The notes below the pieces were generated by a model that saw only the letters and a list, made by a program, of their open reading frames with translations, did not search any database and was not told the origin of the DNA. A stretch of DNA of 36,317 nucleotides from a virus. The stretch is from positions 1 through 36,317 of IMG/VR virus record IMGVR_UViG_3300020283_000009; one strand, 5' to 3'. The translations under genes were made by a program, and so were the position numbers. Shown in pieces: positions 3,902 to 9,194 of the stretch (position 1 is the stretch's first letter; every line of letters starts with the position of its first letter).

Positions 3902-4158
3902 AGTAAACCTCCAGACATATAAGTCATAAAATCATCTTGCTTTGTGATGACGCCATCTGAATATTCATAGATGCCATGCAGCTCCATGCCATCACGTTTC
4001 TTCTTACAAACGTGGATCATGTCACCATTTTTTAGACTGTCTGGAAATACGGAAAGGGTGTGGGCTAAAGCGGGCCCGATGTCAGAAATTTTATTTGCTT
4101 TGGAATAAATAGAAAAGCCGCTGCTACGCTGCTTTGGGGTTGCATACCAATAAGTCAT
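3898..4158 (-). CDS. Hypothetical protein
   Basis: An 86-residue protein starting MTYWYATPKQRSSGFSIYSKANK. ATG 4158 is preferred: GGAG lies six bases upstream, whereas the in-frame ATG two codons earlier directly abuts the ribosome-binding site. The pattern of alternating strands (MIHVCKKKRDGMELHGIYEYSDGVIT) suggests a small beta-rich fold. No family recognised. Confidence 0.65.
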   Translation of the reverse strand: MTYWYATPKQRSSGFSIYSKANKISDIGPALAHTLSVFPDSLKNGDMIHVCKKKRDGMELHGIYEYSDGVITKQDDFMTYMSGGLL

Positions 4159-4200
4159 GCTCATCTCCTTCAGTTTCTGTTGATAACTAAAGGATAAGTC

Positions 4201-4626
4201 TTATACCACAAATGTCAAGTCTAAAAATTCTTGCCAGTTCACCGGATTAGAAAATTTAAACTGGGGCTCTAACAACAATCCTCTGTCTACCAGTTCAATC
4301 GCTTGTTCCCCGTTATAGACAAAAATGTCTGCATTTTTTGTGTGCACAAAAATGTAAGTTGGAGCATGTTTATGCTGGGTCATCCAAGACACTTGATGAG
4401 GAGATAGACGGACAGCAAAGCCTTTTGTTGTCTTCAGCTCTACAAAATAAAATTTTCCCAGTTCAGAACAAACGACAAGATCAGGAACACCAAGAGAAGC
4501 CCAGCTCTCCAGACGGGTGAGTCGGATGTTAGGCCGACACTTCTTCTGGTGTTTCCGAAATTTCTGATAAAAGCTCGACTCCAGATTTTTCTTCTTCTGG
4601 GGTAATGTTGATAATATCATGTCCAT
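4201..4626 (-). CDS. VRR-NUC type nuclease
   Basis: A 141-residue protein with the core of the VRR-NUC branch of the PD-(D/E)XK nucleases: GVPDL with D49, then FVELK with E63-x-K65, then LSPHQ with Q78. These are the expected metal-binding and catalytic positions, so it is probably an active endonuclease. The family includes phage stand-alone members proposed to act on branched DNA or in genome maturation. The frame starts inside the terminase-like gene and overlaps it by 98 bases with no good ribosome-binding site, so translation probably depends on coupling; the exact start is uncertain. Confidence 0.8.
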   Translation of the reverse strand: MDMILSTLPQKKKNLESSFYQKFRKHQKKCRPNIRLTRLESWASLGVPDLVVCSELGKFYFVELKTTKGFAVRLSPHQVSWMTQHKHAPTYIFVHTKNADIFVYNGEQAIELVDRGLLLEPQFKFSNPVNWQEFLDLTFVV

Positions 4627-5092
4627 GCTGGTCTTTTAATTCCTGCAAAGCCTTTTCAACTTCTTCACGAGACATGCTGTCAATCGACCCGTGTCTGATT
4701 TCAGATTTATTGATGTAAATATTGCCCTGAGCCTGCCCCCTGCGATACTCAGCCTGGACGGCTGCAGAGTATGCTCCATTTTCGATAGCCAAATCGCGTA
4801 TGCGCTGCATGTCACGGACATGACGAGCAAAAGTAATGCCGTACTTTTCATCCAGCTCTGCCCTATATGCTTTAATGGCGGCTACAACATTTGGATGCAT
4901 GTTCGGGTTGGTGAGCTCAGAAGCTTTCACATGTGCGGACTTTTCAGGATAGCCTGCGTTGATAGCTGCCTGACGTTTTGTAATCATACCGTCGTTTGCG
5001 ACAAACTCTTTCACAAACTTCTCTTGTTTGGGCGTCAAAGGAGTTTCTATGCTTTTACGAGGTCTACCTCTAGATTTTTTAACAACTTGCAT
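4529..5092 (-). CDS. terS: Terminase small subunit-like DNA-binding protein
   Basis: A 187-residue protein with 'LTPKQEKFVKEFV....TKRQAAINAGYPEKSAHVKASEL....NVVAAI' at about residues 19-68. This is the Terminase_2 small-subunit pattern, a helix-turn-helix that recognises the packaging site. The N-terminus carries an AT-hook-like SRGRPRKS. The C-terminal part is acidic and helical. It is followed by a VRR-NUC nuclease rather than by a large terminase subunit. ATG 5092 follows AGGG by seven bases. A TATATAA about 20 bases upstream is a possible -10. It could also be a TerS-like regulator rather than the packaging subunit, because no terL is next to it. Confidence 0.7.
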   Translation of the reverse strand: MQVVKKSRGRPRKSIETPLTPKQEKFVKEFVANDGMITKRQAAINAGYPEKSAHVKASELTNPNMHPNVVAAIKAYRAELDEKYGITFARHVRDMQRIRDLAIENGAYSAAVQAEYRRGQAQGNIYINKSEIRHGSIDSMSREEVEKALQELKDQHGHDIINITPEEEKSGVELLSEISETPEEVSA

Positions 5093-5385
5093 TGTGGCCC
5101 TTTATATAGCTTCCTACCATAAAACTAAATCAAATAAGCTATTTTGGCAACCAATAGGGAAAAAGTTACATGTTACATAAAAAGTTACAAAATTATTTTG
5201 GTATATATATGTTATTATTGTAGAAATTACCTGTGTAACATTTTGATCATTTGAATCACCTAAAAAAAATGAAAAAAATATTTTTTTGTTAAATCTGTAC
5301 ATATATAAGTTTCACAGCAAACAACCCCTTATCCAGCAAGGGCTGCAGCGTAACTTTTTTGTGTTTGAAAAGTGTTACAAAAGTT

Positions 5386-5421
5386 ACACCCTGCTCTGGT
5401 CATCGCAACAGAACAGGGTGT
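5386..5421. repeat. Hairpin-forming inverted repeat
   Basis: ACACCCTG (5386-5393) and CAGGGTGT (5414-5421) form a perfect 8-bp stem, with an inner CTG/CAG. There is no T-run on either strand, so it is not a typical terminator. It overlaps the last GTTACA repeat. Confidence 0.55.
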
Positions 5422-5426
5422 AATTG

Positions 5427-5439
5427 TCAATCAACAGCA
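5427..5439 (+). repeat. Leader direct repeat, copy 1
   Basis: TCAATCAACAGCA here recurs exactly at 5637-5649. Both copies are followed within a few bases by a GGAGAT ribosome-binding-site-like sequence. Confidence 0.6.
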
Positions 5440-5441
5440 GA

Positions 5442-5540
5442 ATGGAGATTCGTGCATACATAACCCTAGTCCGTGGGCCGTGCACCGTCAAGTTTTTTCT
5501 TCAGCTCGACTGTCAAAAAAATGACACGTCAAAAAATTGA
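5442..5540 (+). CDS. Possible 32-residue leader peptide
   Basis: A 32-codon frame (ATG 5442, TGA 5538-5540) beginning MEIRAYITLVRGPC. It follows the same 13-base leader sequence that precedes the acetyltransferase start. No clear ribosome-binding site lies before its ATG, and it overlaps the first two palindromes of the operator array, so it may be chance. Kept as a weak candidate. Confidence 0.2.
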   Translation: MEIRAYITLVRGPCTVKFFLQLDCQKNDTSKN

Positions 5541-5556
5541 CGTCAAATTATTGACT
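5511..5556. promoter_or_regulatory. Array of three tandem palindromic operators
   Basis: Three 16-base palindromes with the common form GTCA-N6-TGAC: 5511-5526, 5527-5542 and 5541-5556. They are directly adjacent or overlap by two bases, and the last one touches the -35 box of the promoter at 5556-5584. Repeats of this type are bound cooperatively by dimeric regulators. The regulator is not identified; the ribbon-helix-helix protein at 8956-9117 is one candidate. Confidence 0.7.
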
Positions 5557-5584
5557 TGACAATGTATGGGCGTTGTGGTATACT
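5556..5584 (+). promoter_or_regulatory. Strong sigma70-like promoter of acetyltransferase cassette
   Basis: TTGACA (5556-5561), a 17-base spacer and TATACT (5579-5584), near consensus. The expected start is around 5591, giving a leader of about 70 bases before GTG 5662. Confidence 0.8.
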
Positions 5585-5636
5585 GTACAATGGAGAATTT
5601 TTTAAAATTTCTTCACGCTATTTGACATCGTAAATA

Positions 5637-5649
5637 TCAATCAACAGCA
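5637..5649 (+). repeat. Leader direct repeat, copy 2
   Basis: TCAATCAACAGCA, identical to 5427-5439, placed directly before the AAGGAG ribosome-binding site of the gene at 5662. Confidence 0.6.
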
Positions 5650-5661
5650 AAGGAGATCCAT

Positions 5662-6258
5662 GTGACTTGCCTTATGATAGAGCCTGTGTCCAATATGATA
5701 GCTAACCATGCTGTCTGTAATTGGCACAGACACAATGACCCGTTGCCCGATTTACATCTGTCGTTTTGTTATGGTCTGTATGAGTATAACAGATTGGCTG
5801 GAGCGGGCATCGGCTGCAAGACCTTGTTAGGTGTTGCTATGGTAGGTAATCCTTGTGGTAGACCAACGGGCCCGGACCGCAAGCTTATCCTTGAAATTAG
5901 AAGGGTATGTTTTAAACCTGGGGTCAAGTTTCATCAGTTGCGTCGTTACTACACAGACAAAATTTTTAAAGATGAAATGTCTAAAAGAGTTATGCCTGTA
6001 TTGGTTCGCAACTTAGACGGGACGCAGCCGTTTGCTCAAGGTAACGCCATCAATGCTTACACCGTGCCAAGCTTCTTTCTTCGCGTCGCAGAGTTTTATG
6101 TAAAACAAAAATTTACAAACATCAAAAAACTGTGGACGTACATACAGGAGACAGAGGACGGCAGGTATATCAGTGAAGCTGGCTATCACATAGACCATTA
6201 TGTGAAGAGCCGTGGGCCGCGACACGTCGCAAAGTTACGGTTTGCTAAAGAACTTTAA
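5662..6258 (+). CDS. XF1762/Mom-like GNAT-fold protein
   Basis: A 198-residue protein with features of the XF1762 family, a GNAT-fold group related to the phage Mu Mom DNA-modification enzyme. The N-terminus has EPVSNMIANHAVCNWHRHNDPLP. A strand-rich LLGVAMVGNPCGRPTGPDRKLILEIRR follows at about residues 67-93, then a helical FFLRVAEFYVKQKF, and finally LWTYIQETEDGRYISEAGY at about residues 159-177. Mom adds a modified side chain to adenine in phage DNA; XF1762 members themselves are not well characterised, so a role in DNA hypermodification is inference. The start is GTG 5662, six bases after AGGAG; ATG 5660 is followed at once by a stop. The gene stands alone between a strong promoter with operator array and a terminator. 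Confidence 0.65.
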   Translation: MTCLMIEPVSNMIANHAVCNWHRHNDPLPDLHLSFCYGLYEYNRLAGAGIGCKTLLGVAMVGNPCGRPTGPDRKLILEIRRVCFKPGVKFHQLRRYYTDKIFKDEMSKRVMPVLVRNLDGTQPFAQGNAINAYTVPSFFLRVAEFYVKQKFTNIKKLWTYIQETEDGRYISEAGYHIDHYVKSRGPRHVAKLRFAKEL

Positions 6259-6300
6259 AAAAGAACGACGGGCGATTTATATTTCACCCGTCGTTTTTTA
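6259..6300. terminator. Bidirectional intrinsic terminator
   Basis: ACGACGGG (6265-6272) pairs with CCCGTCGT (6287-6294). A run of T follows on the plus strand, and A6 precedes it, giving T6 on the minus strand. It lies between the convergent genes 5662-6258 and 6331-6603. Confidence 0.85.
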
Positions 6301-6330
6301 TTTCTTAAACGCGACCAGTCAAAGCGTCGT

Positions 6331-6603
6331 TTAGTGGACCGTTTCATCTGGTAGGTCTGCTGCTTTACGTGCAAAGCTGTCTGCGACTGCTATCATTTCG
6401 GACACGTTCTCAGGATCAGCGCAGCTTCGATAAGCACATTCGATAATTACTGTGAGCAGCCCGACCATGACCAACGGTTCGTGTTGTGCGTCTCCTGCCT
6501 TTGTAGCTTTAGAAATTTCTTCAAGAGCATCGACACCCATGTGATACCCGTGTTCGAAATCTTTACTGTCACTATCGACTATAAGGCGCACTAATTCGGT
6601 CAT
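6331..6603 (-). CDS. Hypothetical acidic helical protein
   Basis: A protein of about 90 residues, MTELVRLIVDSDSKDFEHGYHMGVDALEEISKATK. The start ATG 6603 overlaps the TGA of the upstream gene in an ATGA junction; an in-frame TTG seven codons earlier lacks a ribosome-binding site. It is the last gene of a three-gene leftward operon ended by the terminator at 6259-6300. No family recognised. Confidence 0.65.
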   Translation of the reverse strand: MTELVRLIVDSDSKDFEHGYHMGVDALEEISKATKAGDAQHEPLVMVGLLTVIIECAYRSCADPENVSEMIAVADSFARKAADLPDETVH

Positions 6604-6806
6604 CCCTGCAGTATCCTGTTCCAATGTTTATTTATTACAGAAACTTCTTGATGTGCTTCGCGAGTAAACCCACGGTCACGCAGCAAAGTTTGATTATGCA
6701 GGTTCACCACCTTTTGAATGGCTTCCATCGACTCATGCCATTGAGGGCGCAGGCCCTCTACATAACCCGCTTTATTGACCATATCTTTTACGGTTTCATC
6801 ATCCAT
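6600..6806 (-). CDS. Hypothetical small protein
   Basis: A 68-residue protein (MDDETVKDMVNKAGYVEGLRPQW). It is predicted helical and has no recognised motif. An AGGA lies ten bases before ATG 6806. It is coupled to the next gene through ATGA and begins 12 bases after the stop of the AT-hook-like gene upstream. Confidence 0.6.
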   Translation of the reverse strand: MDDETVKDMVNKAGYVEGLRPQWHESMEAIQKVVNLHNQTLLRDRGFTREAHQEVSVINKHWNRILQG

Positions 6807-6818
6807 ATGCTTATATTC

Positions 6819-7100
6819 CTATTTTTCAGACTTTTGATCAATTAGTATTATTTTATGCATCAAATCACCAAACAGGTCATCAAGCTTTGCAACTGCAGTC
6901 ATATCCTGATATTTGATATCTTCTTTATTCAAATAACGCAGATGCAAAGTGGTCAACAAATTTCTGGTGTTTCGCAAAATGTTTAAATCAGTTTCAGTAA
7001 AAACCACACCTTGTGGGCGGTCTGACTGTTTAATTACTTCGCCCGCAACTTTCAGCTCGACTTTACGAGGGCGACCAGCTTTCTTTTTATCTTCTGTCAT
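6819..7100 (-). CDS. Small protein with AT-hook-like N-terminus
   Basis: A 93-residue protein beginning MTEDKKKAGRPRKVELK. The GRP core flanked by basic residues resembles an AT-hook, which binds the minor groove of AT-rich DNA. The rest is helical (LNILRNTRNLLTTLHLRYLNKED). The start ATG 7100 follows AAGGAGAACAGA, the same ribosome-binding site as the upstream gene 7097-7417, and overlaps that gene's TGA in an ATGA junction. A longer in-frame reading from 7163 lies inside the upstream gene and is not preferred. A regulatory or DNA-binding role is inference. Confidence 0.65.
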   Translation of the reverse strand: MTEDKKKAGRPRKVELKVAGEVIKQSDRPQGVVFTETDLNILRNTRNLLTTLHLRYLNKEDIKYQDMTAVAKLDDLFGDLMHKIILIDQKSEK

Positions 7101-7417
7101 TCTGTTCTCCTTATCTTTTTCGATAAAATATTTCTGTGCATCTCCTGCAACTTTAAGATCCACTCGAAATCTTCAGACCAATATTTGTTGGCACTAAATA
7201 TCGGGCGGAAAGCCTCACCTACATCCATCAGGTTGTCAGGAATTTCATCCCAGTTAGTATTAGTGTCTCTTAGGTCTCCAAGCGTGATGCGCCCTTTAAG
7301 GCCCATGTAAACATTTTGCAAAGCCACAAAGGCAGCATCTTTTTCTTCTGGTTTAAGGTAAACACGACTATTTAATTTTTCAGCAATCTTTCGATTAGTT
7401 CGAATTAAATCTTTCAT
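7097..7417 (-). CDS. Hypothetical protein, first gene of a three-gene operon
   Basis: A 106-residue protein starting MKDLIRTNRKIAEKLNSRVY. ATG 7417 is chosen because AAGGAG lies seven bases before it; a longer reading from 7450 would begin inside the promoter region. It is rich in charged helices with no known motif. It is coupled to the AT-hook-like gene downstream and transcribed from the divergent promoter region at 7428-7481. Confidence 0.65.
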   Translation of the reverse strand: MKDLIRTNRKIAEKLNSRVYLKPEEKDAAFVALQNVYMGLKGRITLGDLRDTNTNWDEIPDNLMDVGEAFRPIFSANKYWSEDFEWILKLQEMHRNILSKKIRRTE

Positions 7418-7427
7418 TCTGTTCTCC

Positions 7428-7481
7428 TTGACAACCATTGAATAGGTCACTAGTATATAAGAGTTATTTTATATAAGTCAA
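7428..7481. promoter_or_regulatory. Overlapping divergent promoters
   Basis: Plus strand: TTGACA (7428-7433), 17-base spacer, TAGTAT (7451-7456). Minus strand: TTGACT (7481-7476), 18-base spacer, TATACT (7457-7452). The two -10 boxes overlap, so the promoters for the operons at 7417 and 7494 probably compete. The plus -35 also contains part of the ribosome-binding site of gene 7097-7417, so the plus promoter is less certain than the minus one. Confidence 0.55.
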
Positions 7482-7493
7482 GAGGAGTTTTAT

Positions 7494-7709
7494 ATGAACG
7501 CCGCAGACATGAGCGTAGAAGAATTTGAAAAGCATCTGGCGGACATGCGCGACAGGCTTTTCTATTATAAAAATTATAGTAAAGAGACGGGCTCGAAGCG
7601 TGATGACCCAAAAAGTAAACGCACCTATCTGACCCAGAAGCGCGGGCAGGGGTTAGCGAGCGGTTCGCTAAAGCGTCGTAAGCCTATGCGTCATCAGCGT
7701 CCATACTAG
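7494..7709 (+). CDS. Small basic hypothetical protein
   Basis: A 71-residue protein (MNAADMSVEEFEKHLADMRDRLFYYKNY) with an acidic helical N-terminus and a strongly basic C-terminus (KSKRTYLTQKRGQG..SLKRRKPMRHQRPY). The basic tail suggests nucleic-acid or membrane contact. AGAGGAG lies seven bases before ATG 7494. It is the first gene of a plus-strand cassette whose second gene is a DNA methyltransferase; its TAG overlaps the possible GTG start of that gene by one base. Confidence 0.65.
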   Translation: MNAADMSVEEFEKHLADMRDRLFYYKNYSKETGSKRDDPKSKRTYLTQKRGQGLASGSLKRRKPMRHQRPY

Positions 7710-8398
7710 TGCGGTTAATATGTAGATATGTTTGTGTCGATGACCCTGTACCGGAAGGCTGGACGTTACACAAACTATATGGTCATCATGGTGCAAATGG
7801 ATATGGAGTAATTACAATGCCTGACAACAGAGAGAAGGATGATTTCTATCCAACGCCTCCTGAAGCTACAAAAGCCATGATGTCCCGTTGTCCGTGGTTG
7901 AAGTTCCCTGAAGAGGGGAACGAGTATGCCATATGGGAGCCAGCGTGTGGCGAAGGTCATATGTCAGAAGTTTTTAAAGAAGCAGGGCTGAGCACATACA
8001 GCACGGATCTCGTGGACCGTGGGTATGGTGACGCACACGGTGTAGATTTTTTAATGGAGCAGAAGAGCTTTGCTCCGTGGATAATTACAAACCCTCCATA
8101 TAAGCTTGCCAATGAGTTTGTGAAACATGCTTACAAACTCCAGGTTGAGAATAAGCAGGGCGAGGGGTTTATATTTTTGTTGCGACTAGCATTTCTAGAG
8201 GGACAAGCACGGTATAAAGAAATTTTTAAAGATATGCCGCCCAGTAAAGTGCTAGTGCATACAAAGAGGCTGACCTTGATTCGGGGCGACCACGAAGAAT
8301 CGTGGTACGGTTCGGGAAAGACAGCTATGGCGTGGTTTGTCTGGGAGATAGACCCGTTTACAAAAGAAGGGGCTGCGCCCCGCATTCAATGGTTATAA
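7709..8398 (+). CDS. Orphan DNA N6-adenine methyltransferase-like protein
   Basis: An S-adenosylmethionine-dependent amino-methyltransferase. Counting from ATG 7817, it shows DFYPTPPEA near the N-terminus, motif I PACGEG at about residues 41-46 and the catalytic NPPY at about residues 92-95. NPPY is typical of enzymes that methylate the N6 of adenine or N4 of cytosine. No restriction enzyme lies beside it, so it may protect phage DNA or mark it for packaging or regulation. The start is uncertain: GTG 7709 gives 229 residues with no ribosome-binding site, while ATG 7817 follows GGAG by eight bases and gives 193 residues, nearer the usual length of phage enzymes. The extra 36 residues look protein-like, so both forms are possible. 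Confidence 0.8.
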   Translation: MRLICRYVCVDDPVPEGWTLHKLYGHHGANGYGVITMPDNREKDDFYPTPPEATKAMMSRCPWLKFPEEGNEYAIWEPACGEGHMSEVFKEAGLSTYSTDLVDRGYGDAHGVDFLMEQKSFAPWIITNPPYKLANEFVKHAYKLQVENKQGEGFIFLLRLAFLEGQARYKEIFKDMPPSKVLVHTKRLTLIRGDHEESWYGSGKTAMAWFVWEIDPFTKEGAAPRIQWL

Positions 8399-8955: not shown

Positions 8956-9117
8956 TTAATCTGTCTCTTTTATCTCATACCCTTCTGCTCTGCAAAACAC
9001 GTCAAACATGACGCGGAGCTGACCAGATATACTTCGGTTTTCTAATTCTGCGATTTTCTTGATGCCTTTGTATACTTTGATAGGCACTAACACTGATTTC
9101 CATTTCGACGTATCCAT
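8956..9117 (-). CDS. Ribbon-helix-helix DNA-binding protein
   Basis: A 53-residue protein, MDTSKWKSVLVPIKVYKGIKKIAELENRSISGQLRVMFDVF and an acidic end. A short strand (SVLVPIKV) followed by two helices around 'ENRSISGQL' is the Arc/MetJ-type ribbon-helix-helix pattern, which binds DNA as a dimer, usually cooperatively on tandem sites. ATG 9117 follows GGAG by nine bases; in-frame ATGs upstream (for example 9132) are possible. Its leader contains a large stem-loop (9141-9194) and a possible promoter. It is a plausible regulator for the tandem palindromes at 5511-5556; that link is inference only. Confidence 0.65.
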   Translation of the reverse strand: MDTSKWKSVLVPIKVYKGIKKIAELENRSISGQLRVMFDVFCRAEGYEIKETD

Positions 9118-9140
9118 AAGACCCTTCTCCATAATTCCCC

Positions 9141-9194
9141 GGCAAGGACAGGGCCTCAAGTGTCTGGCTGGAGGGTTGGACCCCTGCCCTTACC
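9141..9194 (-). promoter_or_regulatory. Large stem-loop in leader of ribbon-helix-helix gene
   Basis: On the minus strand GGTAAGGGCAGGG (9194-9182) pairs with CCCTGTCCTTGCC (9153-9141): a 13-bp stem with two G-U pairs when read as RNA and a 28-base loop. There is no T-run after it, so it is not a standard terminator. It ends about 24 bases before ATG 9117, close to the ribosome-binding site. It may control translation, stabilise the PolA mRNA end, or act as an attenuator. Confidence 0.6.

What the first reader, a model, noticed from the sequence alone, without database searches (positions are those of the whole stretch)
5556..6300. Stand-alone XF1762/Mom-like cassette: candidate DNA hypermodification system
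A GNAT-fold protein with the XF1762 signature sits alone between its own promoter, operators and bidirectional terminator, oriented against its neighbours. Mom-type proteins chemically alter adenines in phage DNA to escape restriction. Together with the orphan methyltransferase cassette 1.2 kb away, the phage may carry a two-step or paired modification strategy.
Basis: partly seen in the sequence, partly recalled or inferred. Interest (0 to 1): 0.75.

Follow-up and report, generated by a model that had tools for sequence, protein, structure and literature searches.

The report
Mom-like gene in swappable phage cassette
This marine phage carries a distant relative of phage Mu's DNA-disguising enzyme Mom on a small unit with its own switch that near-identical phages lack, so it is probably an optional tool for hiding phage DNA from bacterial defences.

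Summary
The observation largely holds. Window 5662-6258 (+, GTG, 198 aa) encodes a GNAT-fold protein whose best solved-structure match is phage Mu Mom and whose profile aligns to phage XF1762 proteins over both halves. By curated cut-offs it is not a member (XF1762 42.4 bits against 50; no Pfam Mom hit). Its clade is a divergent sister with about 45 extra residues before helix 3, near the presumed cofactor loop.

It stands alone behind a strong sigma70-like promoter and three GTCA-W6-TGAC palindromes (0.01 expected). New here: palindromes, promoter and gene form one 766-bp cassette (5493-6258), cleanly absent from a sibling phage contig whose flanks match at 96-98%. The terminator remains in the empty site, so it belongs to the locus. 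Related phages carry other single genes near this site behind similar palindromes.

The proposed pairing with the nearby methyltransferase is not supported: siblings without mom keep it, and mom-carrying relatives lack it.

Most likely function, inferred only: a mom-type accessory gene that modifies phage DNA against restriction. Chemistry and regulator are untested.

The parts
5493..6258 (+). Cassette: palindromes, promoter and mom-like gene; absent as one block from sibling phages
   Evidence: L185 aligns to 4000-5492 (98%) and 6259-7708 (96%) with 10 bp in place of the cassette; the same empty junction in L181, L189, L192 and, with one base changed, L195
5512..5555 (.). Three GTCA-W6-TGAC palindromes (5512-5525, 5528-5541, 5542-5555), putative operators
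   Evidence: 3 found, 0.01 expected; recur upstream of the gene in most syntenic relatives; none in four cultured relatives without mom
5556..5584 (+). Sigma70-like promoter TTGACA-17-TATACT with extended -10 and TATGGG in the spacer
5650..5655 (+). Ribosome-binding site AAGGAG
   Evidence: sequence
5662..6258 (+). Mom-like GNAT protein, 198 aa, GTG start
5917..6054 (+). Codons for the extra segment (about residues 86-131) between strand 4 and helix 3; limits approximate
   Evidence: absent from XF1762-type proteins; partly low confidence in the model
6264..6295 (.). Terminator hairpin of the locus, also present where mom is absent
7709..8398 (+). Small DNA methyltransferase (phrog_799, NPPY motif); neighbour, not part of the cassette
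   Evidence: distribution independent of mom

Best explanation
The unit is a moron: an accessory single-gene cassette with its own promoter. Its product is a divergent Mom-type GNAT enzyme that most likely transfers a small group to adenine N6 in phage DNA before packaging and so protects the DNA from host restriction. A near-consensus host-type promoter would drive it strongly, and a protein that binds the GTCA-W6-TGAC palindromes beside the -35 would hold it back or time it. Shown here: family relation, fold, cassette limits, unusual promoter and palindromes. Inferred: DNA as substrate, adenine as target, the group added, the sign of regulation and the identity of the regulator.
For: Mom-like profile match; XF1762 model matched below its cut-off with both halves matched in relatives; profile-profile P 98.1 to XF1762 phage proteins and P 95.5 to Mu-type Mom; Mu Mom is the first PDB hit for this model and for an XF1762 model; shared invariant His22, Glu78 and Arg81. 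Cassette shown by empty sites. Palindromes and promoter found at this locus.
Against: Curated thresholds of XF1762 and Pfam Mom are not met. Mu-type Mom aligns by profile only over the N-terminal half. In the structural re-ranking Mom is tied with unrelated GNATs (Z 13.2). The equivalent of Mom's Ser124 is uncertain: S137 by helix position, A143 by one alignment. No biochemical data on any protein of this clade.
Confidence: 0.6

Rival explanations
1. A GNAT that modifies a host protein or small molecule, for example RNA polymerase as reported for the phage GNAT Rac, or a defence component.
For: The model is about as close to protein N-acetyltransferases as to Mom; phage GNATs of that kind are described (PMC7824862).
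Against: Sequence profiles lead to Mom and XF1762 proteins only; the invariant WHRHND and E-x-x-R positions align with those families.
Confidence: 0.2
2. A Mom descendant with a changed chemistry: the segment before helix 3 alters cofactor use, so a different group or a different base is modified.
For: About 45 extra residues at the presumed cofactor-binding loop throughout the clade; the Ser124 equivalent is uncertain.
Against: Position of the segment rests on a model of moderate confidence (pLDDT 79, under 50 at 92-103); core family residues are kept.
Confidence: 0.13
3. The Mom-like protein and the methyltransferase form a paired or two-step modification system.
For: Same strand, about 1.45 kb apart, in the window and in G001-G003.
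Against: Siblings with an empty mom site keep the methyltransferase; mom-carrying G006 and G007 show none.
Confidence: 0.04

Closest known systems
Phage Mu Mom (Pfam PF25680; PDB 8bv8)
   Same: GNAT fold, first PDB hit; conserved His at the HY/HR position, Glu and Arg of the ELNR/EIRR motif; single late-lying accessory gene in a phage.
   Different: No Pfam hit; extra segment before helix 3; lacks Mu Mom's C-terminal part (198 against 231 aa); no com gene and other control sites.
XF1762 family proteins of phages (NCBIfam NF045478; e.g. Streptomyces phage Samy, Pelagibacter phage HTVC034P)
   Same: Both halves align in order, P 98.1; HRH, E-x-x-R, T-Y and E-x-G positions invariant.
   Different: Below the curated cut-off; about 45 extra residues; alone in its own cassette, whereas in the examples viewed it lies within gene runs.
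Operator-controlled accessory genes such as anti-CRISPR loci with Aca regulators (comparison from general knowledge)
   Same: Strong promoter with adjoining palindromes, and varied single-gene cargo near one site in relatives.
   Different: No regulator gene inside the cassette; no anti-CRISPR relation tested.

Membership tests
Mom (PF25680) | GNAT fold | tested here: met
   AF2 model, Mom first PDB hit
Mom (PF25680) | Score above Pfam gathering cut-off | tested here: not met
   No Pfam hit for the window protein; best relative L030 18.2 bits against 27.1
Mom (PF25680) | Conserved His and E-x-x-R positions | tested here: met
   H22, E78, R81 invariant in the eight-protein alignment with Mu Mom
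Mom (PF25680) | Serine whose mutation inactivates Mom (S124 of 8bv8) | tested here: inconclusive
   S137 by helix position, A143 by MAFFT
Mom (PF25680) | Modifies adenine N6 in DNA | not testable with these tools
   needs nucleoside analysis
XF1762 family (NF045478) | Score above curated cut-off of 50 bits | tested here: not met
   42.4 bits, E 5.9e-11
XF1762 family (NF045478) | Both halves of the family profile present, in order | tested here: met
   hhalign over both halves; hmmsearch two domains per relative; NCBIfam 2-68 and 88-121 in relatives
Moron (accessory phage unit) | Present or absent as one block between close relatives | tested here: met
   empty sites in L181, L185, L189, L192, L195
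Moron (accessory phage unit) | Own promoter | tested here: met
   near-consensus promoter inside the cassette; no transcription data
Moron (accessory phage unit) | Own terminator inside the unit | tested here: not met
   hairpin lies outside the cassette and is present in the empty site
DNA methyltransferase-linked modification system | Co-occurrence of both genes | tested here: not met

The most novel reading that the evidence does not exclude
The region beside the small-terminase gene is a cargo slot in this group of marine phages. Interchangeable single genes, mom among them, are held by a common regulator through GTCA-W6-TGAC and TGYGACA-N3-TGTCGCA palindromes, and the other, unknown cargo genes are further counter-defence functions. 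The Mom variant there has a new segment at the cofactor site and may make a new modified base.
Probability: 0.2. Interest if true: 0.7.

Novelty: new variant of a known kind. Interest (0 to 1): 0.45.

Why it matters
Mom-like genes are common in phages (284 phage records match Mu Mom), but little is known of how they spread and are controlled outside Mu. Near-identical phages with and without the gene offer a natural comparison for what DNA hypermodification gives a phage. The recurring palindromes also point to neighbouring genes of unknown function as candidates for counter-defence.

Tried and rejected
Pairing with the methyltransferase: rejected by distribution. Regulation through GATC methylation as in Mu: only two GATC sites lie in 5092-5662, none in the palindromes. 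A small protein at 8956-9159 looked like a ribbon-helix-helix regulator (Pfam RHH_5 E 0.19, not significant) and was shared by mom carriers but not by four cultured relatives; it proved common in phages without mom (29 of 33 contigs that reach TerS have no mom), so it is not tied to mom, though it may still be the regulator. Relatives in bacterial genomes: none confirmed. Direct relatives in named phages by tblastn with the window protein: none. tRNA near the gene: none in the window. PADLOC: nothing for the protein, the methyltransferase or three cargo proteins. Literature: no paper on XF1762; the Mu Mom mutational paper I looked up is not held; papers on HTVC023P-type and CHAB-I-5 phages searched do not mention Mom. 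Whether the empty site is ancestral or a loss was not decided.

Full report
WHAT WAS CHECKED. The ORF at 5662-6258 (+) is real by position, ribosome-binding site and conservation: relatives at 76-99% identity were aligned first, divergent ones at 43-64% followed. The promoter at 5556-5584 and the hairpin at 6264-6295 are as described. GTCA-W6-TGAC occurs three times in a row at 5512-5555 and nowhere else in the window; 0.01 were expected and none of 100 shuffles reached three.

WHAT THE PROTEIN IS. PHROG phrog_1384 ('Mom-like DNA modification protein') matches residues 4-87 at E 2.2e-8. The NCBIfam XF1762 model gives 42.4 bits, below its cut-off of 50, and Pfam gives nothing. In relatives both halves of the XF1762 model are matched, in order, with a gap between. 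Profile-profile comparison joins the clade to 24 phage XF1762 proteins over both halves (P 98.1, E 9.5e-14) and to eight Mu-type Mom proteins over the N-terminal half (P 95.5, E 1.5e-8); the two reference sets also match each other. The AF2 model (mean pLDDT 79) has Mu Mom as first PDB hit; VIA-align gives Mom Z 13.2, rmsd 2.4 over 142 residues, tied with several other GNATs. A model of an XF1762 protein also finds Mom first. So it is a GNAT-fold, Mom-related protein outside the curated limits of both named families.

WHAT IS DIFFERENT IN IT. Between strand 4 (ending in EIRRVCF) and helix 3 the clade has about 45 extra residues, partly of low confidence. In GNAT enzymes the loop before this helix holds the cofactor's pyrophosphate (general knowledge), so the segment lies near the presumed cofactor site. 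The serine changed in the inactive Mom crystal structure is at NSE-S-RAIS and aligns with S79 of the XF1762 proteins. In the XF1762 model S79 lies 12 residues before the helix end and 17 before strand 5; the same distances in the window model point to residues 138-139, closest to the invariant S137. MAFFT instead places A143 there. This remains open.

THE CASSETTE. Comparison with close relatives is the main new result. L185 aligns to window 4000-5492 at 98% and to 6259-7708 at 96% and lacks everything between. L181, L189 and L192 have the same empty junction, CCGTCAAG then CCCTAAAAGC then the terminator, and L195 differs from it by one base. The cassette is therefore 5493-6258: palindromes, promoter and gene. 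The terminator is present in the empty site and so belongs to the locus. Whether the empty state is ancestral or a loss was not determined. Of 33 contigs found through a shared small gene and reaching TerS, 29 had no mom.

CONTROL REGION. Across syntenic relatives the gene is kept while the control region changes by modules: three strict GTCA palindromes in the window and G001; two in G002 and G003; two plus a 17-bp palindrome TGCGACA-N3-TGTCGCA in L020; both kinds in L021, L022, L024 and L026; only the second kind in L010 and L011. Neither kind occurs in four cultured relatives without mom. The promoter form with TATGSG in its spacer was found only at this locus in the window and in G006 (there also for the divergent gene), and not in the other G001 stretches fetched nor in those four relatives. 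In G001 and G002 one further GTCA palindrome lies upstream of the large-terminase operon, kept between the two phages within partly differing sequence; G006 has none there. This suggests, without proving, a regulator shared with late genes. In phages without mom such palindromes stand before other single genes in this region: 113-aa, 96-101-aa, 128-aa and about 241-aa proteins; those tested have no PHROG match.

METHYLTRANSFERASE. The 229-aa protein at 7709-8398 matches phrog_799 and has an NPPY motif. It is kept by empty-site siblings and not found in mom-carrying G006 and G007. No functional tie is supported.

THE PHAGE. The window is a 36.3-kb virus record. Its DNA polymerase is 55% identical to that of phage DSL-LC04, 54% to phage 023Pt_psg01 and 52% to Pelagibacter phage HTVC023P. 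These relatives have no phrog_1384 match. The host is unknown.

HOW IT PROBABLY WORKS. Shown: family relation, fold, cassette limits, control elements. Inferred from Mu Mom: transfer of a small group to adenine N6 of phage DNA, protecting it from restriction (PMC7824862 describes Mom as a GNAT acting on adenine N6). Inferred from the strong promoter and abutting palindromes: repression or timing by a DNA-binding protein not identified here.

Noticed in passing
window 5165-5390: Cluster of GTTACA/TGTAAC repeats between the TerS start and the cassette, also visible in the mom-less siblings; could be packaging or regulator sites.
   Followed up: no
window 8956-9159 (-): 67-aa protein resembling a ribbon-helix-helix regulator (Pfam RHH_5 E 0.19, not significant); conserved beside the DNA polymerase gene in this phage group, with or without mom.
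   Followed up: partly
L161 295-1028 (Microbacterium phage Appa): A tRNA-Gly gene lies just after a Mom-like gene, and a ParB-like nuclease gene just before it; Arthrobacter phage GravityBall (L160) has a ParB-like gene one gene upstream of its Mom-like gene.
   Followed up: no
L042 2974-3469 (Vibrio phage 10N.286.55.F1_PE001): A tailless Vibrio phage in which the Mom/XF1762 region is annotated as two consecutive short genes.
   Followed up: no
L010 3545-3997 (-): 150-aa protein with helix-turn-helix repressor matches (phrog_4 E 3e-5), convergent with the mom-like gene of this relative.
   Followed up: partly
L237 9332-10057, L255 6298-6639, L026 5228-5614: Other single genes of unknown function behind the same palindromes in related phages.
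   Followed up: partly
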